A stretch of 64,000 nt of DNA, from contig OY754469.1 of assembly GCA_963575645.1 (NCBI GenBank), positions 25,004,001 to 25,068,000 on the forward strand. Reading direction: 5' to 3'. The stretch is from Xanthostigma xanthostigma (taxonomy: Eukaryota; Arthropoda; Insecta; Raphidioptera; Raphidiidae). Shown one piece after another: positions 21,301 to 62,227 of this stretch; the first letter of the stretch is position 1; each line of letters starts with the position of its first letter. A program made the translations under genes and the position numbers. Below the pieces are notes generated by a model. The model was not told where the DNA came from and made no database searches. It saw only the letters and a list, made by a program, of their open reading frames with translations.

Positions 21301-24300
21301 GCCGCGAGGACGTCTTGGCCGTCATAGCTCCTGCCATATCATGTAACAAGTCGACTGACGAAGTGATAGGCTTGGCGTGTGTTGCGCTCGGTCTTATCGC
21401 TATAGGCAGATGTCATATGAAAGCCACTGAACCAATTATTCAATATATTGTTGATATGAAAGAAAAAAACATATCGATTATCAATTCACATACAATGTTT
21501 GTGTTCCTCGGGCTTGGTTTGTCCTATCTTGGTAAATATGTTAATGGTTTTGTAGATGATAGTTTTTTTTCTGTAATAGACAAGAGCTCGCGGCCAAAAA
21601 TTTCGTACTACAGTCAGCGATCTGGACCTCTGGCGCCGGGGAGTTTTAAAAGGTGTAAAAAGAAAATAGTGATTTGTAAAAGCTGAAAAGTAGAAGGTTA
21701 ATTTTTAATGAATATAATTTAAGAAAAAAACAGCCATACCTCATTTTGTTAGTAATGGCCTAGTCAGCACTAATGATGTGAGGAGGAATATTTTCCTCCC
21801 CACATCACTTTTTTGGAAAATTTTCCGGAAAACCCACAACTCTTGTCAGCATCCAGTGAAAGTTAAACTTCTATATACCTTTGACTGTGCCAGTTTTATC
21901 ATAATTTACAAATCACTATTTTGTTTTTACACTTTTCAAAACTGCTCCACGCCTGAGGTCCAGATCGTTGACTGTAGTATACAGAGTGCATCACAGAAAA
22001 CCGTACATAGGGAAAATTCCATTGTGCAAATTAGTGAGGATCGACGATTACTTTGGCTACATATGAGAATGGGTACCATCAACCATTCGGAACCCAAAGG
22101 AATGGTGAGACCTCTGGTGAGAAATGCGCCGAACTGTCCTAAGGGGGGTTTTTGACAGGTAAACTATGGAGGCATAAGGTAAACATAAAAGTATATGAGG
22201 TAAACACTGATTTAAAAAAGCATGATGGAGGTTAGGTTAGCCTCCATCATGCTTTTCTAAATCAGTGTTTGCCTGTCAAAAACCCCCCTTAGGATAGTTC
22301 GGCGCATTTCTCACCAGAGGTCTCACCATTCCTTTGGGTTCCGAATGGTAACACTGACTAATCATTATTTAATAATAATAATAGCTAATAATTTATAATA
22401 AGAAAAATCAGTTAAAAAATGAAAATATTTTTATTAATGAAGCAATTTTTTATTGGGAAAATATTTTTGACTTAACGAAACAAACAGTTAAAATAAAAAA
22501 AAGAAAGCAAATGTTCTTAATCGGTTATTAGTTATTGGCCTAACTAGTAGTCAAGTCATTCATAACGTGTCAGCGCGATGTTTTCAGCACGAGTCGTAGG
22601 TGCGCAGGCACGAGCGAAGCGAGTGCATACTGCGCATCGGAGACGACACATCCTTACTCAACCAGAATGCAAGCCAATAACGCCAATGTTGTCGTTAAAT
22701 TAATGTCAAAAGCTTTTGGACAAAGACACATGGTTTTCCTAGCCCCTAGTATAACGAATTGCCTGCAGACATATAAAGATAATCAGAAATGCTGAAAAAA
22801 ATTTAAAAAATGTCTCTGAATGGCCTAGAGCAGTAGGTGAAGATGGTCTAAATGCCAGTTGTAATATACTCATATAATCTCACATAGTATTGTATTCTGT
22901 ATTATTATTAATCTTTTATTTTCTATATTTTAATCTTTTATTACACGTCCAAAACATATATTCCTGTCCTAGCACTGGCTTCTGCCAAGTTGGGCAGGAT
23001 TATTCCAATATTAAAATTTGTATTAAAATACATATCATTATTACAAATATGGAATTAAAATTAAATAAATAAATTATATATATTTACAGGTCAGCGCGAA
23101 AGCGATGCTGTTATCGATGCAACATTGAATGTACTACCGGAGCCCCTATGTTCTCTTGCTCATACCATGTTAACAATGTGTACTTATGCTGGATCGGGTG
23201 ACGTTCTCATTGTACAAGAGCTCCTATATACTTGTTGTGAAGTAAATTTTGCCGAGGTATTTCAAATTTAATGAAGGGTAAATTTTATCGTTAAGGCTTA
23301 GCTCATACGTACCACTTTCCGCCCACAAAACAGTGGTCCTAATGTGGTTGAACTCGACCACTTTCCATCAATAGTTTTGTGGGCACGCAGACGTTGGTGA
23401 AAGTCTAGGGATGTAACGGGTACCCGGTCTACCCGGCCAAAACCAGGTACCCGGCCAGGCAGGCCGGATACCCGGTTTCACCAGGTATCGGGTTACCCGG
23501 CCGGGTACCCGGGTTTTTATTTTGTTTTCTATTTTTGGTAAATTAAAACATAAAAGAACTGAAACAGTGTATTTTTATGATGATAAAAAATACATTAAAA
23601 AAAAAAAACAGTTTTTAAAAGGTTATAACAATAAACTTTGTTAAATAAAACATTTAATAACTAAAATCAATTAATGGCAAATTGTGGTGAAGATAAACTA
23701 ACATTTCACCATTCTCAGAGGATAGTCGGTTTCGGGTTTCTTCATAAATATTACCCGCTTCTGAAAACAACCGTTCACTAAATATTGTTGAGTTAATTGC
23801 TGAAAGAAACTTTTTAGCAAGCTTTGTTAGATTGGGAAATCTCTCTGAATTTATTTTCCCCCACGAAAATGGGCTTGATTGTCTATCAATTAATGGCAAT
23901 GCCAAATAGCACACGCGGCCGACCGGCGCGATGTTGTCAGTAGCTTTCTGCAATATTCCACAAAACCGGGTACCCGGCCGGCTACCCGGTTTTGCCGGGT
24001 CTTAATTGACCGGGTATCCGGTTTGGCCGGATCCTAAAAAGGGCTATCCTTTACATCCCTATGTGAAACCACAAATGAACCACACAGAACTGACAGTACA
24101 GCGATGGATTTCGAAGAGGCAGCATTGGTGTGGCTTTTGTTACGCCAAAGACGACGTGTCGAAAGTATTGCTATCGTCCATTTTTTAATATAAAAAAATA
24201 CAAATACCAAGAGCGCGTCTTGATGCGTCACTGCATACAGAATACTGGCGGCTGGCACGTAAACGTTATGGTAATTCTGTTCAGTCTGTGGTTGGTTAGT

Positions 24301-27300
24301 GGTCGGCGAGTTGCACGTGTGAGCGGGGTTTTCATCATCGACAGGTTTGTTTGTGGGCGATATCATCAACACACGCCGACTGTTGTTGACACTGACCACA
24401 ATTTGTTGTCAGTCTGAGCGCTATCACGACATTATTATGCCGTACTCTCAACCACCGACCACTTTTTTGTGGTTCTAATGTGGGCGGAAAGTGGTACGTG
24501 TGAGTTAAGCCTTAGTCAACTATGTTCTCACTTAAAATATTTACAGGAAAATAAAAATGTCGAAGAGAATAAAACATCGCTCGGAACTGACAAAAAGTCA
24601 CTCACCGTTCTTTTTAATAAAGAGAGCAACAGGAAAATACCAGAACGTCCGAATTCACCTGGATCTGGAAAATGTATAATTCTAAAATTGTTTATTTGAA
24701 CATGGGAAAAAGACACTCTTCTATGATGTGTACATTTTCATTTTAGCAAATTTGAAATCAAAACCACAAACCGAAAAAAAATCAGATGGTAAAAATAAAA
24801 CTGACGCTCGCGTGACATTCATTGAATCAGAAAACGCCGATGATAACGATAAATGTGATATGTCCGTTGTGCAGAGTCTTGCCGCTTTAGCAGTGGCTTG
24901 CATTGCCATGGGTGAAGAAATTGGGTCTGAAATGTGTCAACGAATACTTGGGCATTTGGTAAATTTAGTATCATATTTTCATATCATGTCCAGTACCTAC
25001 TATCTCGTTAATTCGCACTTATGAAAACCAAGCTAGTGTCGGATTAGTGGAAGTGACGGATTACAATGTATACTTACTTTGCGAAGGAAAGAGTAACATA
25101 TTTTGTAACAATAAGTTTATTGAGTAATCGGTATATACTTTTGACGTAATTTTCGGAATTCAGAACATGACATACCTACATGTATTAAATAATTTTGCAT
25201 TGTCTTCAGCTAGTTAAAAAAAATGACTGTTTAAAATGTTTGTTAGATTATCGAGCGACAGATTAAAGAGAGGAGGACTGTACATAATGGCATGTAGATG
25301 ATGAATTTGATAGTTTCCCGTCAATTTTTGGAATTTGGGAATAATAAAATTAACTATTACTTTTTAATAATAATCCTGTTTTAAATAGGCTCGATATGGT
25401 GAACCAGGAGTCCGCAAGGCTGTACCGCTTGCAGTGGCGCTTTGTTCAGTTTCGAATCCACAACCCGTCGTAATTGACGTTTTGAGCAAACATTCACATG
25501 ACTCAGATCTTTTTGTAGCATGCAATGCTATCTTTTCGCTGGGCATTGTAGGTGCAGGAACTAATAACGCTAGACTCGCTGCTATGCTACGACAGCTTGC
25601 CGTTTATCATCAACGAAATCCAAACCATTTGTTTGCAGTGAGACTTGCTCAAGGCTTGACATACGCATCTAAGGGAACCGTGTCGTTTTCACCGTTTCAT
25701 AGCGAGACTCAAATTATGAATCCTGTTGCCATCGGATGTTTGCTTGTAACTCTCGTTGCAATGCTCGATTGTAAAAATAGTAAGTTGAAGACATTTGGTA
25801 TTATGTTATGCTGTGCAAATGGTGTGTGAACACTTTATTAAGTGTAGGAAATGACCAATAAAGCGATTTGAGATAGGAAATCCATAACTGTTGTAATGAA
25901 GCTATGAGGCGTGACACTAGTATACTCGCCAGCAGGTAGGTAACCTATTGCTCACCAGGTGATTGATATCGCGTGAGTCGTGACAATGTGTACCGCAATC
26001 TATTAAGATATATGAGCAGTCACCATAGAGATATTAGCATAGATAAACGTATTATACTTAGGAAGATAAGTATCCTAGTTAACCAAAATGAGACCACTTA
26101 TGATGCTCGCCGCTAGGTGGCCACCTATTGACGAGCATCATAAGCTAAATTTTTTTAATCTGCGAGTGTAGAATATGTAGAGTTTCCATAGTGAATTGTG
26201 CTGATAATGGTTCGGCCGTCTGGTGACTAGCATCATAACTACATATTATGTTTTCCGTAGTGAATTGTGCTGGCAATTTGGTCCTCTAGTGACCAGCATC
26301 ATAACTACATTTGTTCTTCAAAGATCCTCTTCCGTCATTCAACTGTATTGTACAATATCCCGCGGTGACAGTAAGTAAATGAATAACTTTAATTAAAATT
26401 TTATTTTTAAACAAAGTTCTGATGTTGAGTCAAAAAAATCCGAACAAAAATATAAATTCAAGAAATAAGATTATGTATTTCATTTTGAATTATTTTTATT
26501 ATCTTAATTAATTAGATGCTTATACCGACACTGTACTTCTCCCATAATAAAATAATTGACATGATCTTCGATGCTACAAAATAATATGTCATTCACAATA
26601 ATTGTAGAGTAGAATACATAACCAAAGTGGACGAAAAATGCACCCTGTATTACATGTTATAAATTTGTTAAAATCCGTAGGTGAAAAAATATATGATTAA
26701 TTATTTAACGGCCTGACAGTTGAATTTTTTTTAAAGATTTTTCAGAGATGATATTTTTTTTGGTATCTATAGTCCAGAAATATAATAAAGAGAATGTTCG
26801 ACTATTTTTTTTTAAATTCGTATTCATGGTTTTAAAATATAAACAGCCTTATGTATGATTTGAAAAAATTCTGTCGGTACGTTCATAAATTGTGTCAAAA
26901 AATTATTTCTTATTTCATTTCCGAGAATTTTTCAATAATGGCTTGTGTTAGTAATTCGTGCAGTTACGTTAACTGTAAAAATTGTAGACGAAATTCACCG
27001 GGATTAAGTTTTTACAGATTACCTTTAATATGTCTTAAAGTTGAAAAGATCTTTGACGAATAATGAATTTTTTTAAATTATTAAAATGAATTCGTATCCA
27101 TGATTTTGATTAAACTGTGAAACAGACTAAAAAAAACGTTACCACGACTATTCAAAATCAAATTTGAAAATTCAAAAATTTTGAATTATATTTGGTTTTT
27201 TACATTTATTTAGAAATTTAAGTGCCGTTGTTTACGTGGCGTTTCTATGGTTTGAAACAAACTGGGAACTGTCGTCACGGAAAACTGTAAATTATCATTT

Positions 27301-30300
27301 ATCACATAACGTCAAAAAAAAAATAAAATTGATGGTTTTTAACAATTTATAAACCATTGAGCGAGTAATTGGGATCAATTTTTCTGACAATTTTATTATA
27401 TAAATAATAATAAATTATAATTATAATAAATAATAATAATAATAAATTATAATAAATTATCGACCAATTTTTCAGACAATTACCTATATTGACAAAAATA
27501 TATAATTATAATTCAATAAATTTATTGAATTATAATTATATATTTTTGTCAATATAATTATCTGAAAAATTGGTCGATAATTTATTTATTGAAGAGTACT
27601 AATCAGACGTTAATCAAAGATTCAAATATCAAAATGTTTATTACTAGCCATTATACACGTCACTGCACACGTTAGTAGAAATTTTATTTTATTTCTATTG
27701 ACAAAATATGTCAGTACCTATTTGTAAAGTTGAAATGATCCTTGATGAATAATAAATTGTCTTAAATTATTAATTAAAATGAATTCGTATTCATGATTTT
27801 GATTAAAATGTGAAACAGACTAAAAAAACGTTACCACGACTATTCAAAATAAAATTTGAAAATTCAAAAAATTTGAATTACATTTGGTTTTTTTATTTAT
27901 TTTAGAAATTTATTTGTGCCGTTGTTTACGCGGCGTTTCTATGATTTGAAACAAACGGAACTGTCGTCACGGAAAACTAAAATTATCACATACCTACGTC
28001 AAAAATAAAAAAAAACATTGATGGTTTTTAACAATTTATAAACCATTGAGCGCGTAATTAGGATCAGTATAGAGGTAGCTTTAAGATTATCTGAACTTTT
28101 AGTTTAACCATAATGTAGGTGGAAGCACAAAACAACATTCAGTTTGTGGGCCAGGGGTATGAAACGTAAGAGGTTTACTATATAAAAGTGGTCTCATTTT
28201 GGTTAACTAGGTTACGAATCTTCCTAAGTATAATATGTTTATCTATGATATTAGACTAGAGTACGCAAGTGAGCTATGAAAGTGTGTGCAATTCAGAGAA
28301 AGAAAAGCCTTATCTCTATACTCTATAGTAACTAATGATACATCTTTATATATAAAAATTACGTGTCACATGTTTGTCCGCGATGAACTCCTAAACTACT
28401 GAACCGATTTTAAAGATTTGCACACCGTGTGCAATTCGACCCAACTTGAAAGATAGGATAGCTTACATTTCAATTTATAGTCGCAATATTATTTTATTGC
28501 AAATTATTTGTCTATTCCCTGACAGTCATAATTATCTGTTGACTGGATTGAGTGAATATTCAATAGATGGCGCAACGTTTCATATAAGCTACAATTCAAT
28601 AGCATAACCACCACGTGTTACTGAGGTTAAGGTATCGAGCACGACGGCGCAGCCGGAGTGCTCGAAATAGAGCAAGTGTTTTAAAGACCAGTTATCCACG
28701 AATACTTTACGCTATTTTTTTTCGAGCACGACGGCGCAGCCGGAGTGCTCGACATACACACATATACGCCCATGTATATTTAAAAATAGCTAGCAATTAA
28801 TAAAATAGATAGATAGATAGATGTTCCAATTAAATTGTTTTATTATTTCACTTTATACGTAGCGAAGCACGTACAGGGCCGCTAGTTATATTGTTACGGG
28901 TAGATTTTTTTAATAATAAATAAGTAGGTTAAGTTAGTCAAAATCACTCGGTTTTAATTCGTAATAAAAAAAAAATTATAAATGAACATAAAAGTTTACA
29001 TCGATTACATAGAAAAAAAATAATAATATTCTAGTAACACTATATACAAATAATTAATAATTAATGACGTCCTCAAGACGGACAGTTCAATATATTATGG
29101 TCGTTTACGTACGACGGTCAAAATTTAATTTAGTTCTCTCTATTGAGCAGAACGGTCTACGGGCACGGCACGGACAAAATAATATCAAGCTATTATATCA
29201 TTGGACAATTTTCCTACGTTGTGTTTTTTTATTAGGACAGATCATATCGGACGTACATCATACAAATTTAATAGGCCCCACTCACGATCAAACTTCATGC
29301 CACAGTTCAGTGTTCAGTGAAGTTGGACCGATTAATCGAAAGACTGACTGGTACCACACACAGTTCATGCAAACTGCTCATTTTTTTAAATTTTTTATGT
29401 TCAATTTGGTTCAGTTGTTGGCATACACTCGTCGAGTATAGATATATAAAATATATATTATATACATACTATAATATTATACTATAGATTATTATTAATA
29501 AGAAGTAAATGAGTTATTTAAATGGTGAGGATTGGCTGTTCATAGCTATGGGATTGTATTTAAAACAGAGAAATAATTAGAAAAAAGAATATGGGTGAAA
29601 AATTTGTTAGAGATGCGTGATTCAAGAAGTCATGTTTATTTGATTAATGAATTACATCTTGAACCGCTTGATTGGAATAATTATTTACGAATGGATGAAT
29701 TAACTTACAAATTATTATTTACTGGAATTAGTTACCCAATTTATTAAGAACCAGGACACAAATATGCGAAAATCTATTTCTGCACAAGAAAGATTTGCAG
29801 CAACATTGAGATTTTTGGCTTCTGGTTGTACAAAACACAGAACTTCAAAAACTGAACTGAAAAAACCCACACAGACAGCAGTTTACTTGAACACTGAAGT
29901 CGTTCAAAAATCAAGATGCATTTGATGAGTTCATGCCTGACTTCAGTGTTTATTTGTCCCACACATTATCATGCTTCACTGAACTATAAGTTTGAACACT
30001 GAACTGTGGCATGAAGTTTGATCGTGAGTGGGGCCTATAACGGGACATAAGTTCAATGATTGAAGATCTAGCGTTCGTGTGCAGTGGTGTGATGTAACCC
30101 ATTGATGAGGGCGGATCGTCGGAAAACAAACTCATCAACCCTCAAACAGGCGTATGTGGTGTCATGTGTGTGTTTGAGCGGTCGAATTGCAAAACTCACC
30201 CTGTATATATGTATGTGTTAGAGCGGTCGAAATGCAAAACTCACTCTGTATAGTGTATGTGTTAGAGCGGTCGAAATGCAAAACTCACCCTGTATAGTGT

Positions 30301-33300
30301 ATGTGTTAGAGCGGTCGAACTGCAAACTCACTCTGTATAGTGTATGAGTCTAACTCAGCGAACTGTGAAAGACTGATTTTACATTGAAAATCTAGATCAG
30401 ATATCATAGTATACGTACCGCACAATATGCGACCGTCCAATAATAAAAATAAAAAACTTAATCAAACAAAATACTCATGCGACATCTAGTCGCGGAAAGC
30501 CGTTCTAAAAAGAATCTTATTAGGCCAAGAAACAAATTTATAATAACATCATAACTACTATGGTGCGTAGCACTTTTATACAGTTCAAACTTGATGTAAT
30601 TTGTACATCAAGAAACAAGTTCATAATAACATCAAAACTACTATGGTGTGTAGCACTTTTATACTATTCAAACTTGATGTAATTTGTACATCAAGAAACA
30701 AGTTCATAATAACATCAAAACTACTATGGTGCGTAGCACTTTTATACTATTCAAACTTGATGTAGTTGGTATATCAAGAGACAAATAAAAATTATCCATT
30801 GAATATTAATGACTGAAAATTAAAATTCGTAACAATATTATATAATGATACGGAATGTTTGCAGTGTTCTCTCTCTGAACTGCAGACACTTTCACTTATG
30901 GCAAGCATATCCGCTAGCGTACTCTAGTAACTTATATCTTTATGGCAGTCATAAACATGGATCGTTTTATTTGTGCTTACCTAATTTGACAATATACAAC
31001 ATGATTTTTAAGTTGATTCTCTTTTTTAACAGCGCGTAGAAATCAAATACAGAAACAAATATTACAGGTAACTTTTTTATCAAATATAAAGTACGGGTTT
31101 ACAACACAAAATTTCCGGCGGAATTGCGTGTCGCGGCCGACGTTTGACCGGCGCAGCGACGAGAAAGAAATAGAATGTGTTACGTGAGAAAAGGGGAGTC
31201 GCAATTTGGACACGGTATAGTGACGACGTGAACAGTTACGAAATAAATAAATATAGCTGTGTGGGTATTAGATCAGTGCAATTTAAATATAAATTATATA
31301 AATAAATTGGAGTGCGTCGTAAATTTTGTGTTATTGTCTATATGTGGACTTTATATGGACTGTAATAGTGTTATACGGACATTCAGTGTTTTATAGTGTT
31401 GCGCATTTACCCCACAGTGATGCGCCTATGTGAGTTTCTAGAAAAGTCTACACAATACTCGAAGGTCAACTGACAAACAATGAAAGCAGGTAACGGACTT
31501 CCGCCCGTTAGAGACTCCCACGCATGTAAAGACAAGCAACAATGAATGCAGGTAGCCAGCACCCGGCCGTAGAGACTCGCACGCGTGGAGAGGAAATCTC
31601 GATTCGAATATTCTAGAAACATAGACCGAAAACTATAAAAAGGCGAACAGAGGAAAGAAGGGAGCTGAGTCAGTTACAGCGTGTTAACAGTGAGTGGACG
31701 TACAGTCGGTGACAGTTAACTGTGTTACATAAATTGTGCAGTCGGTATAGTAAGATCGAAGTAGCTGTAAATAAATAAATGTTATAAGTCAGTCAGTTAT
31801 TGAAGCTGTTCGTTGCGTTGACACAGTGTTCTGGCATACAACATAAATTCTGTTAATCTGTGGAAATAAATATAACTCTAGTGAGTGGCTTTAAATAAAT
31901 AACTTATAGTGAATAGACAATTGCGCTGATAAACTCTGTGTTGTGTTCCTGTGTGTTGTTAATACTTCTTTGTACATAATTTAGCGATTCTTTATTCTTT
32001 GTTACTTAGGCTACATACGCACTAGGCGGCTACCCGCAAAGCGGCTAGCCGCGCGGCTAGCCGCAAGTAGTAAACTATACGTAAATTCTGTATATATAAA
32101 AAAATGCATACGCACTACGTTGCGGCTGCCCGCCAACCGCTCCGGTCGCTTGGAGCACAGCGGCCGCTTCGACGGCTGGCCGCGCGGTTCGTGTACGCAC
32201 TACGCGGTTTAGTTTGCGGTTAACCGTTACCTGGGTAGTCGTGTATTTTGTAATCTGACAATTTACATTATGAATGTTTTTAATATACTCAATAATTCTT
32301 CAAATGATTTTAAACGCATTCTCATGTAACCAAAAAACTTGTCTTCATATTTTTTGAGGTTTTCAAAAAATATATCAAAATGCCTGGTTTCATTTCGTAT
32401 TTGTAAGAAAGGATGTATCCAGTATTTTTTTTTCTTTTTATTTTTTATGTAGCGATCGTATATATAATAAACAGCTACAACTTCTTCAACGTCCATTGTA
32501 GAAATGGTTCGTTTTGTTTGGTTAAACAAAATCTTTCTGGTAAACAAAATATGTCTGGTTTAAATTAGATTCAACCGCAAATTCAACTGACGTTACATAC
32601 GCACTAGGCGGCTGCCCGCAATGCGGCTAGCCGTCCGGCTGAACGCAGATTCAACCGCACACTGCGGTTATCCGCGCGGCTAGCCGCATTGCGGGTAGCC
32701 GCCTAGTGCGTATGTAGCCTTAGTCTTTTGTTTTATAATCTAGAACTATTAGTTTTATTTCTGTTAACGTTATACGCTCTCGTTTGTGTATTTTTACTGT
32801 TTGTTAAACAGTTAATATTGTAAATAAATAATTTCCGCCACGGACTACAGCAGTTTTGTTACAATAGTGTTGTGTATATATGGATTTTTCGTAGTGGTGT
32901 GCTAGTATATTATAGTAGTGAAGTGTTTTTGTGTACCTACATAAACTATTAGTAGTGACTATAAATTGTATAAATAAGTACTTTTTAATAAATAAAATTA
33001 TCGACCAATTTTTCAGGCAATATATTTTTTTGATCCGGATTTGGATCTTCTTCAGAACGGATCTAAAAATATAAAAAAAATAATTTATAATTAGATTCTA
33101 TTTATTTTTAATGTAATTCGTGAAAGATTTTTTTATAATATAGAAATAAGTACTTTTTAGTTTGTTCATTTGTTATTCGTTTATTGTTTGTGTTTGTGAA
33201 CGTTTTAATAAGTGTGTAATGAAGTGAATATAGTAGAAGGTTATGTGTGCGCGCTCATCAGTTAATAAGTAGCTTTCATGGAGAAGGGTTGTGTTGTGTA

Positions 33301-36300
33301 TGTTGTATTGTTGTAACTGAATAAATGGTGATTAAGTTTGATACAAATAGTTGTGTTTATATTAAATACCTGTGAATATGTTACAAAGTGTAAATAAATA
33401 TTCTTCACCGCAGAAAGAACAGTTTTGTTACAATACTTTTCCATAAGAATAAAGTATGCTAGCAATGCTAGGTACTTTATTTTGAATCTTTACAGTGATT
33501 ACTGATTATACTAAACAAAATTCTCCTATATTTTAAAGGAAAAATACTGCTGAAAATGACAATATATACTTAAAAATGCGAGTAATAACTTACCGAATTA
33601 AAAAAAAGTGTTTCTTATTTGCTCTCTCTTCCCGCAACCTCAGCTTTTGGGTGATGAATGTGAAGTAGCGAGAAGAGAGAAACAAATCGTCCATAAATTT
33701 AATTATTTATTCGAATCTGCACTTAGATTGTAAAACTAGCTATGAAACGTTCAAAAACAACCAAAAATTATTAGCATGTAGCCCAGTCATATTTTACACT
33801 AAAAATCGCTAATCTCGCAAACTAACGTGTAGTTCTGATTTTTTAATATATTGTTAGGACCACTACCAGTAGCGTATATCCAAGTTTGCAGCTTCGAAAG
33901 ACCTGTGCTAACTTTGCAGCACTCAAAAAACTGCGAAATATTCGCACTTTTTTTGGTATTCTCAATATAGGTCTTAAAGTATGCATTTTTTTATAAAATA
34001 TTTTTTATACGTTTTTAAGTAGACTAAAATTGCTACAATCTGAGACAAGAACCAGCTCTGTAGGTTCAATACTTACCGAGATACAGTTTTCCAAAAATTG
34101 ACCAGATTTTTCAAAAAAGTGAAATTTTAAGATTTGGTCAATTTTTGACCCCGATATCGGGGAAAATACTCATTTTAAGGGAAATATCATAGGAACAAAT
34201 ATTGTAGCAAATGTAATTAGCTTTAATTTAAGCAGAGAACGACGTCTGTAGGTCATATAGTTTACTCACAAATTTTAAAAATCCAAAAAATGAGAAAACT
34301 GCATTTTCGCAAATTTAAATTTAATACCTACTAATCGTTATGTAAATCCATTCAGTGCTTTTAATGTGGTTGAGTAACCAAATTGAGTAACATAGTAGCA
34401 TAAACGAGTAACATAATAAAAAAATAACATAATTGATAACATCATAAAAAAATTCTGCAGTTTTTGACAAAATACCGTCGTATTTCAGCCATTTTGTAAA
34501 AAATATTTACAAATTATATTCATAAACCTTCCTCGTTTATCGCTCTTTCTATTAGCGAAAACCATTTCAAAATCCGGTGCGTGGTTTAGAAGAAATGAGC
34601 GGTGAAAAAGACAAAGAAAAAGACAAAGACAGTCTGAGACTCTGATTTTAACTATGTAGCCTTTGCTAAAATTTCGTCGTAGTTCAGTTATTTTGTAAAA
34701 AATATTTATAAATTATATACAGAAACCTTCCTCGTTTATTGCTCTTTCTACTACCGAAAACCATTTTTAGGTCCGGCGCATGGTTTAGAAGAAGTGAGCG
34801 GAGAAAAAGACAGACAGACAAAGACTGTTTTTAACTATGCAGTCTTTGACAAAACACCGTCGGTGTTCTTCTAAACTATGCGCCGGATCTTAAAATGGTT
34901 TTCGGTAATAGAAAAAGCAATAAGCATGGAAGGTTTCTGTATATAATTTGTAAATAGTTTTTACAAAATGCCTGAACTACGACAGTGTTTTAGCTCAGAC
35001 TGCATAGTTAAAAATAGAGCTCCTGTCTGTCTTTGTCTTTTTCTCAGCTCACTTCTTCTAAGCCATGCGCCGGATCTAAAAATGGTTTTCGGTAGTAGAA
35101 AGAGCAATAAACAAGGAAGGTTTCTGTATATAATTTATAAATATTTTTTACAAAATACCTGAACTACGACGGAATTTTAGCAAAGACTACATAGTTAAAA
35201 TCAGAGTCTCAGACTGTCTTTGTCTTTTTCACCGCTCATTTCTTCTAAACCACGCACCGGATTTTGAAATGGTTTTCGCTAATAGAAAGATCAATATTAG
35301 TGGGAGCGATCTGTCGAAAAAAAACCCTGTTTTTGAAGTCGGAAAAAACATTTTTTTTTCCTATATTGTAGTTTAGAGTCTCCTCTATACATTAAAAATA
35401 TTTTTGGTCCAGCAGGTGGTGGGGGAGGGGGGGAAATGACCATGGAAAATATGGGAAAATGAGTTTTTAGACAATAACTTTCTTAGTTGAAGTTGGACGG
35501 GAAAAAAACAATAGGTAAAAATGAAGGGCTCAAAAATACGCATAAACTGGTTTTTTGTTTTTTAAAATCGGTCCAGCGGTTCCCGAGATATCACGATTTG
35601 AATCAGCAAAACGGAGGCTGTACTTTTATGTCGCGTAAGAGCCGTGTTGATTTTTTTTTGCAAGGAAGAAATCGACTTAGGGACTTGAAATTTTTTTCCT
35701 CGGCAGATGGTCGGGTCCAAATGATTGTCTGCAAATTTCAAGTCCCTAACTCGATTAGAAGGGAAGGGGGAGGGGAAATAAAAAAAAAATTTCAAATTGA
35801 CCGACTTTCTTTATTTATCGGCCGATCTCGCACAACCAACGTGACTTTATAAAGGAACATTGGAACTTTAATTTTCAATATTTTTTTTTTATTTTTCGCC
35901 ATAAATAAACAAATTATGGCGAAAAAACCAATTTTTTTTTTTCGAAAAAACGTGTTTTTTTCTGGGAAGGAAGGGGGTGGGGGGAAAAAAATAATGCCAT
36001 TAAACGCGTTTTTTTATTATCTTTAATTTAAGACGCCATGGAATGTAATCTGATGATTAGGAAGGGCGGAGGAGACCCGCAAAGTCTTTGCCCTGTAGCG
36101 GAGCGAGGAAAAGGGTTACGGACTTCAACCTTGGCTTATTTTCAAGGTACATCAATTGGCTTTCTAAATCTTTTAATTCGAAACCGATATCTCGATTAGG
36201 GCATGAAGGAGTGCGTGATAAGCTTATCAATTCGTATGTGCATCGCAGCCGCCGAGCAGCGAGATGCCGGGGGCGGAGCCTAGCGCTCCCTCTCCTTTCC

Positions 36301-39185
36301 TTTCACTTTCACCAATACTTCCCCACTCTGCGCGTCCGTGTGTAGTGCTGAGCGGGAACTTTCAGTTCAAAATTATTTTTGAATATATCGGTCACATCTC
36401 GCTCGTTTTTAACCGATTCACTTCATTTTTTTTTAATATGACCTATACTTCACCGCTAATCTACCCTCACCGTTTTTGGAATATTCTAGTACCTTTTCCA
36501 CGACTCGGTAATAAATTATTGAATAACATCCACGCGAAAACAGAGAGTAGCACTCAAGTATAGTAGCGGTGAAGTATAGGTCATATTAAAAAATGTGACC
36601 GATATATTCAAAAATAATTTTGAACTGAAAGTTCCCGCTCAGCACTACACACGGACGCGCAGAGTGGGGAAGTATTGGTGAAAGTGAAAGGAAAGGAGAG
36701 GGAGCGCTAGGCTCCGCCCCCGGCATCTCGCTGCTCGGCGGCTGCGATGCACATACGAATTGATAAGCTTATCACGCGCTCCTTCATGCCTAATCGAGAT
36801 ATCGGTTTCGAATTAAAAGATTTAGAAAGCCAATTGATGTACCTTGAAAATAAGCCAAGGTTGAAGTCCGTAACCCTTTTCCTCGCTCCGCTACAGGGCA
36901 AAGACTTTGCGGGTCTCCTCCGCCCTTCCTAATCATCAGATTACATTCCATGGCGTCTTAAATTAAAGATAATAAAAAAACCATGGACATATGTCCATGA
37001 AAAAAACGCGTTTAATGGCATTATTTTTTTCCCCCCCACCCCCTTCCTTCCCAGAAAAAAACACGTTTTTTCGAAAAAAAAAATTGTTTTTTTCGCCATA
37101 ATTTGTTTATTTATGGCGAAAAATAAAAAAAAAATATTGAAAATTAAAGTTCCAATGTTCCTTTATAAAGTCACGTTGGTTGTGCGAGATCGGCCGATAA
37201 ATAAAGAAAGTCGGTCAATTTGAAATTTTTTTTTATTTCCCCTCCCCCTTCCCTTCTAATCGAGTTAGGGACTTGAAATTTGCAGACAATCATTTGGACC
37301 CGACCATCTGCCGAGGAAAAAAATTTCAAGTCCCTAAGTCGATTTCTTCCTTGCAAAAAAAATCAACACGGCTCTTACGCGACAAAAAAGTACAGCCTCC
37401 GTTTTGCTGATTCAAATCGTGATATCTCGGGAACCGCTGGACCGATTTTAAAAAACAAAAAACCAGTTTATGCGTATTTTTGAGCCCTTCATTTTTACCT
37501 ATTGTTTTTTTCCCGTCCAACTTCAACTAAGAAAGTTATTGTCTAAAAACTCATTTTCCCATATTTTCCATGGTCATTTCCCCCCCTCCCCCACCACCTG
37601 CTGGACCAAAAATATTTTTAATGTATAGAGGAGACTCTAAACTACAATATAGGAAAAAAAAAATGTTTTTTCCGACTTCAAACCTTGAGTTAGATCGATC
37701 CCACTATATACGAGGAAGGTTTCTGTATACAATTTGTAAATATTTTTTTAAAATGGCTGAAATACGACGGTATTTTGTCAAAGACTGCACAGTTAAAAAC
37801 AAAGTCTCTGTCTTTTTCTCCGCTCTCTTCTACTAAACCACGCACCGGATTTTGAAATTGTTTTCGGTAATAGAAAGAGCGATAAACGAGGAAGGTTTAT
37901 GAATATAATTTGTAAATATTTTTTACAAAATGGCTGAAATACGACGGTATTTTGTCAAAAACTGCATATTTTTTTATGATGTTATCAATTATGTTATTTT
38001 TTTATTATGTTACTCGTTTATGCTGCTATATTACTCAATTTGGTTACTCAACCACATTAAAATCACTGAATGGATTTACATAACGATTACTAGGTATTAA
38101 ATTTAAATTTGCAAAAATGCAGTTTTCTCTTTTTTTGGATTTTTAAAATTTGTGAGTAAACTATATGGCCTACAGACGTCGTTCTCTGCTTAAATTAAAG
38201 CTAATTACATTTGCTACAATATTTGTTCCTATGATATTTCCCTTAAAATGAGTATTTTCCCCGATATCGGGGTCAAAAATTGACCAAATCTTAAAATTTC
38301 ACTTTTTTGAAAAATCTGGTCAATTTTTGGAAAACTGTATCTCGGTAAGTATTGAACCTACAGAGCTGGTTCTTGTCTCAGATTGTAGCAATTTTAGTCT
38401 ACTTAAAAACGTATAAAAAATATTTTATAAAAAAATGCATACTTTAAGACCTATATTGAGAATACCAAAAAAAGTGCGAATATTTCGCAGTTTTTTGAGT
38501 GCTGCAAAGTTATCACAGGTCTTTTGAAGCTGCAAATTTGGATATACGCTACTGGTAGTGGTCATAACAATATATTAAAACATCAGAACTACACGTTAGT
38601 TTGCGAGTTTAATGTTAGATATGACTGGCCTAATGTGCTAAAGGCACAAATAAATAGTATTTAATGCAATAAAAGCTTAAATTTAAAAAGTACCTTTTTT
38701 TCGTGCAAATACTTTATTTTTTCTTATTTATAAGATTATAGATAAGTTATTTTTCTCAAAAAGTTTCAATCCATAACTCAGTGTTAACCTGGTCATCTTT
38801 TAGAAGTTTCTAGCGTAGTTAACATTTTATCTTGTATATTGTCATCTACATTCTATTCTACATATTATATTTTTGCATTGTAGCAATCCTTGGAAAGAAT
38901 CATTATCTTCTCTATACTTTGGCCGGCGCAATGAATCCTAGATGGTTGGTAACATTGGATGAAAGTTTGGAACAAATATCAGTTCCTGTTCGAATTGGTC
39001 AGGCAGTGGATGTTATCGGTAAAGCCGGAACGCCTAAAACAATATCAGGCATTCGCACGCATTCGACGCCAGTTTTGTTAGCTGTTGGAGAAAAAGCGGA
39101 ACTTGCCACGGAAGAATATCAGCCGGTATCTCCTATTATGAATGGTTTTGTCATTGTACGTAAAAAGGAAATAGAAACTGATTAA
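12391..39185 (+). CDS. Rpn1: 26S proteasome regulatory subunit Rpn1 (PSMD2/S2), complete
   Basis: Twelve exons: 12391-12447, 12514-12570, 13589-13893, 16435-16679, 16755-16881, 20614-20758, 20823-21531, 23090-23256, 24547-24673, 24747-24958, 25389-25779, 38884-39185. They sum to 2844 bases, 947 residues plus stop, and every junction is AG/GT in phase. Rpn1 is the scaffold of the proteasome base; it docks ubiquitin receptors, shuttle factors and Usp14. Landmarks: [16 protein letters not shown] (about 22-37), [18 protein letters not shown] (about 60-78), [17 protein letters not shown] at the start of exon 7, proteasome/cyclosome repeats from about 390 to 800 ([50 protein letters not shown]), and the C-terminal domain with [13 protein letters not shown] and [17 protein letters not shown]. 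Residues about 605-690 form a charged, low-conservation insert where other Rpn1 proteins have a Lys/Glu-rich tract. It is slightly longer than human PSMD2 (908) and looks rather divergent between motifs. The last intron is 13.1 kb. Confidence 0.96.
13289..13398. mobile_element. Short palindromic MITE in Rpn1 intron 2
   Basis: Termini TCATGGGCGTACCCAG and CTGGGTACGCTCATGA are 16-base inverted repeats with one mismatch. The interior resembles the terminal segments at about 58852-58945 and 63838-63960. Confidence 0.75.
14473..15637. mobile_element. TIR element, family copy 1 (Rpn1 intron 3)
   Basis: The left end GGTGAGTCAGACCACCCGTA is inverted at the right as GAGTAAGGCCACCCGTA. Inner arms also match (AGTCGTAAAGAGTTGTGTCA versus, inverted, AGTCGTAGAGAGTTGTCAAA). 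A second copy is at 46697-47628. No coding frame. Confidence 0.8.
16099..16379. repeat. Small inverted repeats before Rpn1 exon 4
   Basis: AAAGTTTGAGA (about 16101) pairs with TCTCAAACTTT (ending 16180). A second pair flanks 16205-16379 (CTTTATACCTCG versus ACCAAAGTATAAAG, and ATCAATTTTAAGACAGAAAG versus its near inverse). Origin unknown. Confidence 0.5.
17270..18476. mobile_element. hAT-like element A with CATTACTCATTA subterminal repeats
   Basis: It begins CAGTGTTGCAAAAAATG and ends TTTTTGCAACTCTG. Both flanks are packed with variants of TAATGAGTAATG and its inverse (about 17300-17520 and 18310-18450), as expected of transposase-binding subterminal repeats. A pogo-type MITE is inserted at 17761. 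No clear TSD was found. Confidence 0.65.
17761..18148. mobile_element. pogo/Tigger-type MITE with TA target duplication
   Basis: Ends CAGTAGAACCTCTGTAAGTC and, inverted, CAGAAGAACCTCTTTAAGTC, flanked by TA at 17759-17760 and 18149-18150. The TIR and TA duplication fit the Tc1/mariner/pogo group. Non-coding. A second, truncated copy is at about 48565-48828. Confidence 0.85.
18477..20511. mobile_element. hAT-like element B, butt-joined to element A
   Basis: It begins CAGAGTTGCAAAAATC immediately after element A and ends ATTTTTTGCAACTCTG. TAATGAGTAATG-like words recur near both ends. It carries a nested long copy of the GACGTGATAACGTC repeat family (18588-19573). Between 19630 and 20250 no further feature was recognised. 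Confidence 0.6.
18588..19573 (+). repeat. GACGTGATAACGTC repeat family, copy 1 (long form)
   Basis: Begins ATTGGTTGTCTGTAAAGTCG and ends with ATTATCACGTCAAAA, where other copies have GACGTTATCACGTC. It contains an extra block (about 18654-18985) with two GCGCATGCGCCGAT words that short copies lack. Confidence 0.85.
22077..22352. repeat. Hairpin in Rpn1 intron 7
   Basis: The arms 22077-22163 and 22266-22352 are nearly perfect inverted copies (ACCATTCGGAACCCAAAGGA and its inverse). A second, perfect inner hairpin is centred near 22236 (GCATGATGGAGG and inverse). The left arm carries an extra 45 bases with repeated GGTAAAC. Confidence 0.85.
23406..24061 (-). mobile_element. Deleted hAT transposon nested in a TIR element
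   Basis: Ends TAGGGATGTAA and TTACATCCCTA are inverted. The flanks are rich in the word GGGTACCCGG. The interior keeps only the C-terminal end of a transposase. Flanking 8-mers are similar but not identical, so the TSD has decayed. Confidence 0.75.
23654..23953 (-). pseudogene. hAT transposase C-terminal dimerisation domain (fragment)
   Basis: A 99-residue frame contains [20 protein letters not shown], then [20 protein letters not shown] and [18 protein letters not shown]. The order W, FPxLxxLAxxxL, SERLFSxAG, RxxLS and final LxxNL is the hAT dimerisation region. The zinc finger and catalytic domain are missing, so this is a relic. Its last third is intact and free of stops, suggesting a fairly recent deletion. 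Confidence 0.85.
24959..25388. other. Rpn1 intron 10, nothing recognised
   Basis: Ordinary AT-rich intron sequence without repeat or frame of note. Confidence 0.6.
26938..27063 (+). pseudogene. THAP-domain-like fragment
   Basis: The frame starting at ATG 26938 reads [20 protein letters not shown] followed by PGLSFYRLP. The spacing of Cys residues and the SFYRLP motif resemble the start of a THAP zinc finger, a DNA-binding domain common in P-type transposases. It stops after 41 residues, before the His and C-terminal AVPTIF-like part, so it is a fragment. The same coding tail recurs in the downstream duplication near 27725. Confidence 0.5.
27460..27582. repeat. Palindromic MITE, TTATCGACCAATTTTTCAG ends
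   Basis: A nearly perfect hairpin centred near 27523: TATCGACCAATTTTTCAGAC on the left and its inverse on the right. A half copy starts near 33000. Confidence 0.85.
28343..28885. mobile_element. Non-autonomous Helitron
   Basis: It begins TC (TCTTTATATATAAAAATTAC) after an A and ends GGGCCGCTAG before a T, matching Helitron rules (5'-TC, CTRR-3', insertion between A and T). CGATGAACTCCTAAACTACT and the twice-repeated ACGACGGCGCAGCCGGAGTG (about 28640 and 28728) are typical of insect Helitrons. A GATA microsatellite lies near 28805. No Rep/helicase. Confidence 0.85.
29272..30037. mobile_element. PIF/Harbinger element with TAA target duplication
   Basis: Ends TAGGCCCCACTCACGATCAA and the exact inverse, flanked by TAA at 29269-29271 and 30038-30040. 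The TIR pairing extends over about 45 bases (CTTCATGCCACAGTTCAGTG). Confidence 0.88.
29600..29840 (+). pseudogene. Harbinger transposase N-terminal relic
   Basis: Read with at least one frameshift, this gives [20 protein letters not shown] and then [20 protein letters not shown]. This is the region just before the catalytic domain in HARBI1-like transposases. It is broken by a stop near 29746 and ends at the MITE-like deletion, so it is not functional. Confidence 0.7.
30167..30341. repeat. 44-bp tandem array, four copies
   Basis: Unit contains TGTTAGAGCGGTCGAAATGC and AAAACTCACYCTGTATA; unit starts at 30167, 30211, 30255, 30299. Units differ at a few bases and the last is one base shorter. 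Confidence 0.95.
30526..30774. repeat. 83-bp tandem array, three copies
   Basis: Unit starts at 30526, 30609 and 30692 with CAAGAAACAA and includes ACTACTATGGTGYGTAGCAC. The third unit has changes at its end (TGTAGTTGGTATAT). Confidence 0.95.
31478..31600. repeat. Imperfect tandem duplication upstream of the heat-shock-type promoter
   Basis: Two units of about 62 bases (31478-31539 and 31540-31600) share CAATGAAWGCAGGTA and TAGAGACTCSCACGC, with several differences. Confidence 0.7.
31605..31641 (+). promoter_or_regulatory. Heat-shock element plus TATA box
   Basis: CGAATATTCTAGAAA at 31605-31619 is a perfect three-unit heat-shock element (nGAAnnTTCnnGAAn). TATAAAAA follows at 31634-31641, so a start near 31664 is expected. 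A second, two-and-a-half-unit element (TTTCTAGAAA) lies at 31435-31444. No open reading frame of note follows on the + strand. Confidence 0.6.
32009..32719. mobile_element. PIF/Harbinger element with GC-rich ends and TTA duplication
   Basis: Ends GGCTACATACGCACTAGGCG and the exact inverse, flanked by TTA at 32006-32008 and 32720-32722. The ends consist of repeated self-complementary GCGGCTAGCCGC words, far richer in GC than the surroundings. A direct copy of the 5' terminus occurs again near 32594. Confidence 0.92.
32263..32547 (-). pseudogene. Harbinger transposase N-terminal fragment
   Basis: A 94-residue frame contains [20 protein letters not shown] and then [20 protein letters not shown] followed by ELLSIL. 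The W-[VI]-HP ... KFF-YMRM--SFEELL pattern is the N-terminal segment of PIF/Harbinger transposases. The DDE catalytic part is absent, so the element is non-autonomous. Confidence 0.8.
33776..38641. mobile_element. Giant palindrome (foldback element), 4.9 kb
   Basis: The left arm (33776-36458) and right arm (36564-38641) are inverted copies, separated by a 105-base loop (36459-36563). Outer ends contain GCCCAGTCATAT and, inverted, GGCCAGTCATAT. Central arm sequence differs at only a few positions. The left arm is about 600 bases longer because it holds an inner palindrome (34497-35290). No transposase frame occurs in either arm; matching frames in both arms simply reflect the symmetry. Exact termini and target duplication are unclear. 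Confidence 0.92.
34497..35290. repeat. Inner palindrome and subterminal repeats in the left arm
   Basis: About 34497-34855 and 34862-35290 are inverted. The repeated unit (about 200 bases) includes AGGAAGGTTTCTGTATA, ATGGTTTTCGGTA and words such as CTTTGTCTTTTTC. The right main arm carries two such units (37710-37960), the left carries four. Confidence 0.85.
38642..38883. other. End of Rpn1 intron 11
   Basis: AT-rich intron end with a normal acceptor (TTGTAG) at 38883. Nothing else was recognised. Confidence 0.6.
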
Positions 39186-50622: not shown

Positions 50623-53600
50623 ATGGAGCTACAGGATATATATTTTGACAGAAGTGAATATGTAGAAACGGTATTTATATACTTTGGCATTTGCAATAAG
50701 ATTTTTTTATAGTATTCATTTGAGTTCATTAGTTTTTATAGTTTGAACTGTAAATTATTTATCACTTTTAATATTTGTTATATTTTAGGCCTCAGGTAAC
50801 AAAGTTAGTCGTCAGACAGTATTGTGTGGCTCACAGAACATTGTTTTAAATGGAAAAGTGATCGTACAATCTGATGCTATAATTCGAGGAGATTTAGCTA
50901 ACGTGAGAACAGGACGATACTGCATTATCAGTAAAAATGCTGTAATACGACCCCCTTTCAAGAAATTTAGTAAAGGGTGAGTTGATGTCATTTTAATCGT
51001 AATTGCACATACCGCTAAATTAGCGGTATGTGCTTTATTATCGCTTTGAGCGTCAGAGCTGACTTTCGTTCATATAAGAAGTTATATCTAAGTTAATTTC
51101 ACACGAAATCCATTCAAATTGAAGCTTTTTGAAAAGAGGAGATTCTGATCTATAAAACAAAACCATTTTTAAATCAATTCGAGTTCATAAATACGATTAA
51201 AATTGTAATTGAAAGTTACAAACAGCAGTTGTCGGTTGGTCTGTACATATGTACGAATGTACGTCACGACTCTACAGATCGCAATTTTGGTCGGATTGCC
51301 TTGGGTTATATTTTATTCACTTTGTTTAGTATCAGACCAGAACCCTATTTAAATTCACATAAATGTGTTCAGTAGTTTAATTTTGATAAACAGTTTTATT
51401 TTATTATTTTTGACAGCTAATAGTTAAAATAAAAAACCTTAAAAAAACAAAAAAATACCTATTACTGTTATTGTAATGTAGTGTATTACGTAGAATAACT
51501 GCTCCACTTCTATACCACAATAACAACGCAAGCTGGGATATCAGAATGGCCGAGCGGTTAAACGCGTAGTCCAGTAATAGCAAGGTGCCGAGTTCGATTC
51601 CCGCTGACACTAGTAATTTTTTTTGACGTGATAACGTCTTATAAATTGATGAATCACCAATCTTATAAATTGATAAAACACCGGCTGCATGCACGAAAAA
51701 GTGTAACGTTCCTAAATCCTAACGTTCGTAACGCGTAACGTTCCGCCTGACCCTGTGCCTGCTTTTTGCTAATTTCTCGCTCAATTTAAATCAGATCGGT
51801 TTGAAACCAGTCTTAAACGAAAGAGGAGAACATTTTACATAGATTTCGTATAACAGAATTTGCCTAAACAGTTTTTTAATACAAATTTATATAGAAAAAT
51901 AGCTGTATAAATGCAATGTTGTCTAATGCATGGCGCGACGCGGTCGGTCGTCTTTGTTTGCCGTACATGGAAATTAGAAGATAACGTATGTCTTGTCTTA
52001 ACATGAAAACGGCTGCATTTCTAATGTTTAATTCAATTTTTTGACATTAGTATTTTGTGAAATGCAACGCTTTCTAAGTTAAGTATTGGAATAACTAATT
52101 ATTATTAGAACATAATACTTTGACAGTTGCAAACGTCACTTTTGACATTTCTTATCATTCCGACACCAAGGATAAGCGGATTGAAACCAAATTTTGGGAG
52201 GTTTAGGTTATGTATTACGGAATACGTTATCACGTAAAACTATCGTCCGTAAACCGACTTTACAGACAACCAATTTTTTTCTATTCCATTTTATTTTTAT
52301 TTTTTGACGTGATAACGTCTTATAAATTGATGAATCACCAATCTTATAAATTGATAAAACACCGGCTGCATGCACGAAAAAGTGTAACGTTCCTAAATCC
52401 TAACGCGTAACGTTCCGCCTGACCCTGTGCGTGCTTTTTGCTAATTTCTCGCTCAATTTAAATCAGATCGGTTTGAAACCAGTCTTAAACGAAAGAGGAG
52501 AACATTTTACATAGATTTCGTATAACAGAATTTGCCTAAACAGTTTTTTTATACAAATTTATATAGAAAAAAATTGGATGTCTGTAAAGTCGGTTTACGG
52601 ACGATAGTTTTACGTGATAACGTATTCCGTAATACATAACCTAAACCTCCCAAAATTTGGTTTCAATCCGCTTATCCTTGGTGTCGGAATGATAAGAAAT
52701 GTCAAAAGTGACGTTTGCAACTGTCAAAGTATTATGTTCTAATAATAATTAGTTATTCCAATACTTAACTTAGAAGGCGTTGCATTTCACAAAATACTAA
52801 TGTCAAAAAATTGAATTAAACATTAGAAATGCAGCCGTTTTCATGTTAAGACAAGACATACGTTATTTTCTAATTTCCATGTACGGCAAACAAAGACGAC
52901 CGACCGCGTCGCGCGCGCGCCATGCATTAGACAACATTGCATTTATACAGCTATTTTTCTATATAAATTTGTATAAAAAAACTGTTTAGGCAAATTCTGT
53001 TATACGAAATCTGTGTAAAATGTTCTCCTCTTTCGTTTAAGACTGGTTTCAAACCGATCTGATTTAAATTGAGCGAGAAATTAGCAAAAAGCACGCACAG
53101 GGTCAGGCGGAACGTTACGCGTTACGAACGTTAGGAACGTTACGTTACACTTTTTCGTGCATGCAGTCGGTGTTTTATCAAATTATAAGATTGGTGATTC
53201 ATCAATTTATAAGACGTTATCACGTCAAAAGTTTTTTTAAATTTTTGACGTGATAACGTCTTATAAATTGATGAATCACCAATATTATAAATTGATAAAA
53301 CACCGGCTGCATGTACGAAAAAGTGTAACGTAACGTTCCTAACGTTCGTAACGCGTAACGCATAACGCGTAACGTTCCGCCTGACCCTGTGCGTGCTTTT
53401 TGCTAATTTCTCGCTCAATTTAAATCAGATCGGTTTGAAACCAGTCTTAACGAAAGAGGAGAACATTTTACATAGATTTCGTATAACAGAATTTGCCTAA
53501 ACAGTTTTTTTATACAAATTTATATAGAAAAATATTTTATACAAATTTATATAGAAAAATAGCTGTATAAATGCATTGTTGTCTATTGCATGGCGCGCGC

Positions 53601-61044: not shown

Positions 61045-61514
61045 GTCCATATATTTAATAATAACATATATGAATCATGGCCTATCTACTCAATGTGCGG
61101 TAAGTGTACGCAATAAAGCGTATCGAGAATATATCTGCGTCTCTTTCTTCGATGTAATTCCCTGATTTCTCCGTTGATATGATTGGTTGATGTACTTGTA
61201 TTTAATCTGAACAAAACGTTGAAATTGAAGATACCTACCTCTATTTCATTCAAACAAAATGTAAACAAAGCCTTTGACAGAGCTGCAGTTAATGCAGCAT
61301 TATTGTCATATGGAACCTATTTAATAATAATAAACACAAAAGTGAGCATTTTCATCATTAAAAAAATTTTGTTATTATATCTGGCTGGTGCATATCTATA
61401 AGTTTACTCGAGCGCCTGTCCTTATTACCATAGATACATATTTTTTAATTTACCACATAAATAGATATCTTGAAATGAAGGGCAGAGAATAAAAAGACAT
61501 TCGTAAAATTGAGA

Positions 61515-62200
61515 TTTTGACGTGATAACGTCTTATAAATTGATGAATCACCAATATTATAAATTGATAAAACACCGGCTGCATGTACGAAAAAGTGTAA
61601 CGTAACGTTCCTAACGTTCGTAACGCGTAACGCATAACGTTCCGCCTGACCCTGTGCGTGCTTTTTGCTAATTTCTCGCTCAATTTAAATCAGATCGGTT
61701 TGAAACCAGTCTTAAACGAAAGAGGAGAACATTTTACATAGATTTCGTATAACAGAATTTGCCTAAACAGTTTTTTTATACAAATTTATATAGAAAAATA
61801 TTTTATACAAATTTATATAGAAAAATAGCTGTATAAATGCATTGTTGTCTATTGCATGGCGCGCGCGCGACGCGGTCGGTCGTCTTTGTTTGCCGTACAT
61901 GGAAATTAGAAAATAACGTATGTCTTGTCTTAACATGAAAACGGCTGCATTTCTAATGTTTATTTTTTGACATTAGTATTTTGTGATTTGCAAAGCCTTC
62001 TAAGTTAACTATTGGAATAACTAATTATTATTAGAACATAATACTTTGTAAGTTGCAAACGTCACTTTTGACATTTCTTATCATTCCGACACCAAGGATA
62101 AGCGGATTGAAACCAAATTTTGGGAGGTTTAGGTTATGTATTACGGAATACGTTATCACGTAAAACTATCGTCCGTAAACCGACTTTACAGACAACCAAT
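61515..62200 (-). repeat. GACGTGATAACGTC family, copy 7
   Basis: Full-length short form. It shares the TACAAATTTATATAGAAAAA duplication with copy 5, so these two form a subgroup. Confidence 0.9.
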
Positions 62201-62227
62201 TTTTTATTATAAAACAATTAAAAAAAA

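What the first reader, a model, noticed from the sequence alone, without database searches (positions are those of the whole stretch)
33776..38641. A 4.9-kb near-perfect palindrome inside the last Rpn1 intron
The two arms (over 2 kb each) are inverted copies with a loop of only 105 bases and no transposase. Near-identity of the central parts implies recent origin or ongoing gene conversion between arms. The whole structure is transcribed with Rpn1 pre-mRNA and could fold into a very long double-stranded RNA, a possible source of small RNAs. Its outer TIR did not match any superfamily I could name.
Basis: partly seen in the sequence, partly recalled or inferred. Interest (0 to 1): 0.75.

Follow-up and report, generated by a model that had tools for sequence, protein, structure and literature searches.

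The report
Two nested palindromic jumping genes
The long palindrome in this gene's last intron is one hairpin-shaped DNA transposon that later had a second, unrelated one jump into it; relatives of both occur elsewhere in the same genome, so it is a pair of mobile-element insertions rather than a special feature of the gene.

Summary
The inverted repeat is real but is not one 4.9-kb palindrome. It is two nested foldback-type DNA transposons. The outer element (33779-38632, ends TAGCCC...GGCCTA) is flanked by a 3-bp target duplication, ATG. The inner one (35298-37706, ends TAGTGGGA...TCCCACTA) is flanked by TAT and lies inside the outer; sister outer copies show the uninterrupted site. The same genome holds 214 exact outer left tips and 18 inner places, 17 with exact tips. 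Outer copies carry identical 3-bp flanks in 33 of 36 two-ended copies. Of the first 20 outer regions fetched, 14 are 2.6-kb copies and none shows the inner element. An assembly artefact is therefore very unlikely. Arm-to-arm copying is supported for the outer family: 41 variants shared by both arms of a copy against 3.6 permuted, while the outermost 38 alignment columns stay different at the two ends. The Rpn1 last-intron location is confirmed (25780-38883). No Pfam domain in 12 of 41 reading frames tested. No autonomous partner was identified; the superfamily is unassigned. Double-stranded RNA is predicted by folding only. Ordinary in kind.

The parts
25780..38883 (+). last intron of the Rpn1 (PSMD2) gene, 13,104 bases, which contains the nested elements
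   Evidence: GTAAGT donor, TAG acceptor before CAATCCTTGG; flanking exons PC_rep and RPN1_C, PSMD2
33776..33778 (.). left copy of the 3-bp target duplication ATG of the outer element
33779..38632 (+). outer foldback element including the inner insertion (4,854 bases; 2,442 without the inner element and one copy of its target duplication)
   Evidence: ends TAGCCC / GGCCTA found in 35 other two-ended copies, one of them (L030) with an altered left end; length
33810..34617 (+). outer left arm (part matched to the right arm)
   Evidence: 97.3% complementary to 37805-38611
34866..35296 (+). tandem 187-base units inside the outer element
   Evidence: direct and inverted copies
35295..35297 (.). left copy of the 3-bp target duplication TAT of the inner element
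   Evidence: sister outer copies have ...GATCAATAT followed directly by RCGAGG, without insertion; 3-bp match True
35298..37706 (+). inner foldback element, 2,409 bases, ends TAGTGGGA...TCCCACTA
35332..36397 (+). inner left arm
   Evidence: 96.8% over 1,094 columns with gaps; 3 mismatches in 1,049 aligned bases of the core
36465..36557 (+). unpaired centre of the inner palindrome
   Evidence: between arms 36429-36464 and 36558-36593; fold
36593..37682 (-). inner right arm
36982..36999 (.). 18-base perfect palindrome CATGGACATATGTCCATG flanked by an 8-base duplication AAAAAAAC, present in the right inner arm and not in the left
37707..37709 (.). right copy of target duplication TAT of the inner element
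37805..38611 (-). outer right arm (part matched to the left arm)
38633..38635 (.). right copy of target duplication ATG of the outer element

Best explanation
Two non-autonomous foldback-type DNA transposons lie one inside the other in an intron. An outer element of about 2.4 kb inserted into the last Rpn1 intron and duplicated ATG. Later an inner 2.4-kb element inserted into the outer one and duplicated TAT. Both probably moved by cut-and-paste with a transposase supplied from elsewhere (inferred; the 12 of 41 frames tested in this copy show no known domain). Their arms stay alike because sequence is copied between the arms of one element (supported for the outer family, inferred for the inner). 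The outermost ~38 bp escape this, probably because transposition needs two distinct ends (inferred). For Rpn1 the insertion is probably neutral intron ballast, spliced out (inferred); it could give some double-stranded RNA (untested).
For: Other copies: 41 matches from 40 scored of 650 candidates; 214 exact left tips and 135 exact right tips, reversed-pattern controls 0; inner family 18 places, 17 of them with exact tips, 32 tips in all, control 0. Target duplication: 33 of 36 two-ended outer copies share the 3 bases next to the ends (33 of the 35 with TA at both ends; 2.6 expected from shuffled pairing); 9 of 11 inner copies inspected share 3 bases and one shares 4 (one of the nine, L067, counted after allowing for an altered first base). 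Uninterrupted site of the inner element seen in sister outer copies. A typical outer copy (L009) is 2,613 bp with 1,206-column arms at 98.2% and a 151-bp loop. Arm copying: 41 shared variants against 3.6 permuted, 0 of 5,000 as high. Left and right arm consensus differ in 16 columns, all within the first 38, and in no arm of the 28 copies is more than 1 of these 16 columns of the other type. No Pfam domain in 12 reading frames of the element.
Against: No autonomous relative was found, and 29 of the 41 frames of 50 codons or more were not scanned. Of 36 two-ended outer copies, L012 has no matching 3 bp, L036 matches at 4 bp instead, and L030 has an altered left end. One inner copy (C8:33.63 Mb) has two right-type ends and no duplication. 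Most variants found in one copy only are in one arm (83) rather than both (16), so exchange between arms is incomplete. The outer copies studied were those most like the window's left arm, so they are not a random sample; 'found in one copy only' means within the 28 compared.
Confidence: 0.93

Rival explanations
1. A single 4.9-kb palindromic transposon or segment, whose centre is kept younger by gene conversion.
For: The inverted repeats are roughly centred on one point.
Against: Inner and outer parts occur separately: of the 20 outer regions fetched, none shows the inner sequence in the comparison, and inner tips occur at 17 places; each part has its own 3-bp duplication and sister copies show the uninterrupted inner site.
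Confidence: 0.02
2. Assembly artefact: one locus joined to its own reverse complement.
For: Long palindromes are a usual place for mis-joins (general knowledge); no reads could be looked at here.
Against: The outer tips differ at the two ends, outer arms differ at 20 of 799 bases, one arm alone carries an 18-base insertion, and other copies show the same anatomy with duplications.
Confidence: 0.02
3. The palindrome has been kept as a hairpin-RNA gene that feeds small RNAs, with Rpn1 as its host transcript.
For: The sense strand folds into a hairpin (1,451 nt folded at -1186.6 kcal/mol) and lies inside a transcription unit.
Against: Any intact copy of either family should fold much the same way wherever it lies (inference); nothing found is particular to this locus; no RNA data here.
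Confidence: 0.05
4. Arm likeness reflects only recent birth of each copy from identical-armed masters, with no exchange between arms.
For: Outer copies differ little from each other (0.7% between left arms, 1.1% between right arms), and most variants found in one copy only are in one arm (83 against 16 in both).
Against: Variants absent from the majority occur in both arms of the same copy 41 times against 3.6 by permutation, which needs transfer between arms at some stage, in the copy or in an unsampled ancestor. The inner arms of the window differ by 3 in 1,049 aligned bases, while the inner matches of 550 bases or more in other places are 94-99% like the window's left arm.
Confidence: 0.15

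Closest known systems
Tetris, foldback transposon of Drosophila virilis (PMC4079207; abstract and section 10 read)
   Same: Apparently non-autonomous, long terminal inverted repeats containing ~220-bp tandem repeats, variable arm and middle lengths, a shorter relative (DAIBAM) sharing its ends.
   Different: Tetris has 8-10-bp target duplications; here 3 bp. Here the tandem unit is 187 bp. No sequence comparison was made.
Tc4 of Caenorhabditis elegans and relatives (PMC11071193, passages read; the original paper seen only as an entry in its reference list)
   Same: Fold-back structure and a 3-base duplication.
   Different: Tc4 inserts at CTNAG and duplicates TNA; here only 5 of 33 outer duplications are TNA.
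Galileo and FB (foldback) elements of Drosophila (FB recalled; Galileo papers seen only as search listings)
   Same: Long, variable inverted arms and many non-autonomous copies (recalled).
   Different: Longer target duplications (7-9 bp, recalled).
AcademX and Zator DNA transposons (PMC10045372, passages read)
   Same: AcademX 3 or 4-bp, Zator 3-bp target duplications; here 3 bp, with one 4-bp case among 11 inner and one among 36 outer copies.
   Different: Membership rests on a transposase, which was not found here; the terminal sequences of these superfamilies were not available for comparison.

Membership tests
Non-autonomous foldback-type DNA transposon (structural class) | Long inverted repeats making up most of the element | tested here: met
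   outer copy L009: 1,206-column arms and 151-bp loop of 2,613 bp; inner arms about 1.07 kb of 2,409 bp
Non-autonomous foldback-type DNA transposon (structural class) | Fixed ends with target duplication of constant length | tested here: met
   outer 33 of 36, inner 9 of 11 with 3 bp
Non-autonomous foldback-type DNA transposon (structural class) | Dispersed multiple copies | tested here: met
   214 exact outer left tips, 18 inner places
Non-autonomous foldback-type DNA transposon (structural class) | No transposase of its own | tested here: inconclusive
   no Pfam match in 12 of 41 frames of the window copy; two long copies of the families could not be read (for the inner one; the outer one was not requested)
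Tc4-like | TNA duplication at CTNAG | tested here: not met
   5 of 33 outer duplications are TNA
PIF/Harbinger | TWA target duplication (recalled) | tested here: not met
   5 of 33 outer duplications are TWA
PIF/Harbinger | DDE_Tnp_4 transposase inside a copy with the same ends | tested here: inconclusive
   none of the listed PF13359 matches lies inside the two long candidate copies C1:81618665-81625421 and C1:44599659-44608105; 150 of 264 candidates were scored and the listing is cut
Zator | 3-bp target duplication | tested here: met
   superfamily value from PMC10045372
Zator | ISAzo13-like transposase | tested here: inconclusive
   PF07592 gave no match, but the control rang nowhere either
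AcademX | 3 or 4-bp target duplication | tested here: met
   superfamily value from PMC10045372
AcademX | Academ transposase with nuclease | not tested
Tetris / MULE-like foldbacks | 8-10-bp target duplication | tested here: not met
   of 35 outer copies 33 match at 3 bp, 1 at 4 bp, 0 at 5 or 6 bp

The most novel reading that the evidence does not exclude
Both families could belong to an undescribed transposon lineage marked by TAG...CTA ends and an unspecific 3-bp duplication (not compared with Repbase or Dfam, which are not at hand). Its copies would keep kilobase palindromic arms uniform by arm-to-arm copying while the two ends stay distinct, because a transposition complex needs one left and one right end; copies whose ends are made alike would then be dead. 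One inner copy (C8:33.63 Mb) with two right-type ends and no target duplication fits this but is a single case.
Probability: 0.25. Interest if true: 0.5.

Novelty: new member of a known kind. Interest (0 to 1): 0.32.

Why it matters
It turns a puzzling 4.9-kb palindrome into an ordinary and well-bounded event: two insertions, one after the other, in a house-keeping gene's intron. The outer family is of use beyond that. With 214 exact left tips, clear ends and measurable arm exchange, it lets one measure how palindromic transposons stay palindromic, and whether unequal ends are required for movement.

Tried and rejected
Single palindrome: rejected by nesting and the uninterrupted inner site. 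Harbinger/mPing-like reading of the outer end GGCCAGTCAT (resemblance recalled from memory): rejected because the duplicated bases are variable triplets outside a fixed TA, not TWA. Tc4: rejected on target. A 7-bp duplication suspected by eye in one copy (L009): not general, 0 of 35 match at 5 or 6 bp outside the TA. Long inner copy at C5:16.85 Mb as autonomous element: its interior (L069) holds a 120-bp tandem array and other repeats; none of its seven frames of 80 codons or more looked like a transposase by eye, and they were not scanned with Pfam. L025 and L026, left end only, as autonomous copies: L025 has six frames of at least 120 codons, not scanned with Pfam, and L026 has none. Recurrent flipping of the outer loop: 8 of 28 copies carry the middle in the other orientation relative to the tips and the fewest changes on the arm tree is 4, but a tree with the 8 held together is no worse (AU p=0.464) and they are not closer to each other than chance (0.225 of samples as close), so only 'at least one inversion' is claimed.

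Searches that led nowhere: PF07592 (no match, control empty); PF13359 (151 matches, none of those listed in the two long copies); a paper lookup for AcademH (not held); paper searches for 3-bp duplications, foldbacks and Academ gave no terminal sequence to compare. The 18-base palindrome search did not complete.

Full report
What is there. Self-comparison shows two sets of arms: outer 33810-34617 with 37805-38611 (97.3% over 808 columns) and inner 35332-36397 with 36593-37682 (96.8% over 1,094 columns, gaps included). In aligned bases the outer arms differ at 20 of 799 and the inner core at 3 of 1,049. The left side carries 680 bases (34618-35297), largely repeat units of about 187-200 bases in both orientations, against about 95 on the right. 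So the structure is not one continuous palindrome.

Gene context. The exon ending at 25779 is followed by GTAAGT. The last exon begins at 38884 after a TAG acceptor and encodes the Rpn1 C-terminus (RPN1_C 9.6e-23; PSMD2 1.6e-36). The intron is 13,104 bases and the outer element ends 251 bases before the exon.

Two elements, not one. A search of the same genome with 601 bases of the outer left arm gave 41 matches from 40 scored of 650 candidates; they lie at the window and 39 other places. I fetched regions around all 39 (20; 20, one of them overlapping). In the first 20, 14 hold a complete copy of about 2.6 kb, three others have both ends at 2.4, 2.4 and 3.4 kb, one is 0.9 kb and two show only the left end; none shows the inner sequence. 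With the window that makes 40 sequences; 36 show both tips and 4 only the left. The ends are TAGCCC and GGCCTA, and the three bases just outside are the same on both sides in 33 of the 35 that keep TA at both ends, 33 of 36 overall; shuffled pairing gives 2.6. For the window copy these bases are ATG at 33776-33778 and 38633-38635. Sister outer copies run through GATCAATAT into ACGAGG (GCGAGG in one of the five printed) where the window has the inner element between two copies of TAT. The inner element is thus 35298-37706, 2,409 bases, ends TAGTGGGA and TCCCACTA. Its family has 18 places, 17 of them with exact tips; the eighteenth, C1:62.26 Mb, matched by one arm only. Of 11 inner copies inspected at both ends, the window included, 9 have a 3-bp duplication, one a 4-bp, and one none.

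Numbers and sizes. Exact left tips of the outer family: 214; exact right tips: 135; reversed-pattern controls 0. On contigs C1-C3, 94 left tips were listed; 59 pair with an exact right tip within 15 kb: 38 of these are 2.55-2.65 kb, 10 are 1-2.55 kb, 8 are below 1 kb (shortest 116 bp), 2 are 2.65-4 kb and one is 6,757 bp. Two neighbouring left tips at C1:33.50 Mb were paired with the same right tip. The other 35 have no exact right tip there. Inner copies run from 148 bp to about 8.4 kb. Very short copies with both tips suggest that the ends carry the sequences needed for movement (inference; target duplications of these short copies were not checked).

Arms are alike because they exchange sequence. 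In 28 complete outer copies (2.59-2.62 kb) the left and right arm consensus differ in 16 columns, all within the first 38 of 874, and no single arm has more than one of these 16 columns of the other type. Beyond these, variants not in the majority occur in both arms of the same copy 41 times, against 3.6 when left arms are paired with right arms at random (0 of 5,000 permutations as high). Of variants found in one copy only, 16 are in both arms and 83 in one, so exchange is incomplete. 'One copy only' refers to these 28; an unsampled ancestor may have had the exchange. The copies were the best matches to the window's left arm, which probably explains why right arms look more variable. The window copy itself is the most diverged of the 29 compared. 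The middle of the outer element occurs in two orientations relative to the tips, 20 and 8 of 28 copies. The fewest changes on the arm tree is 4, but one origin is not rejected (AU p=0.464).

Transposase and classification. Twelve of 41 reading frames of the window element were scanned and have no Pfam match (2, 10). The interior of one long inner copy holds a 120-bp tandem array; none of its listed frames looked like a transposase by eye, and they were not scanned with Pfam. PF07592 gave nothing, with an empty control. PF13359 gave 151 matches, and none of those listed lies in the two long copies. A 3-bp duplication fits Zator, and 3 or 4 bp fits AcademX, as stated in PMC10045372 (passages read). 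It does not fit Tc4 (TNA; PMC11071193 passages) or PIF/Harbinger (TWA, recalled), as only 5 of 33 duplications are TNA and the same 5 are TWA. By anatomy the closest described element that I read about is Tetris (PMC4079207, abstract and section 10), which has 8-10-bp duplications. The superfamily is left open.

Function. Shown: insertion into the intron, nesting, arm exchange in the outer family. Inferred: cut-and-paste movement by a transposase made elsewhere, and a need for two different tips. Predicted only: a long RNA hairpin. No evidence here says that it affects Rpn1.

Noticed in passing
window 36974-37007: The right inner arm alone carries the 18-base perfect palindrome CATGGACATATGTCCATG between two copies of AAAAAAAC, like a tiny insertion or an excision footprint with an 8-bp duplication (P- or hAT-type length, recalled). 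A genome search for it did not complete.
   Followed up: partly
G000:C10 about 8.6-16.3 Mb: More than half of the listed matches to DDE_Tnp_4 (PF13359) crowd into this one stretch of contig C10, many with open frames of 200-300 codons: a dense cluster of Harbinger-like genes or copies.
   Followed up: no
window 23657-24001 (minus strand): hAT transposase C-terminal dimerisation domain (E=4.6e-16) inside the Rpn1 gene region: another transposon remnant.
   Followed up: no
L069 1974-3893 (C5:16.85 Mb): A 120-bp tandem array inside a long inner copy is read by frames of 134, 203 and 243 codons in a row.
   Followed up: no
L063/L064 (C8:33.63 Mb): The only inner copy among the 11 inspected with two right-type tips also lacks a target duplication and a normal right end.
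   Followed up: partly
window 18878-19586, 51620-53857, 60175-62442: Related repeats, some with 24-base units, occur several times in the window and also inside the long inner copy L069.
   Followed up: no
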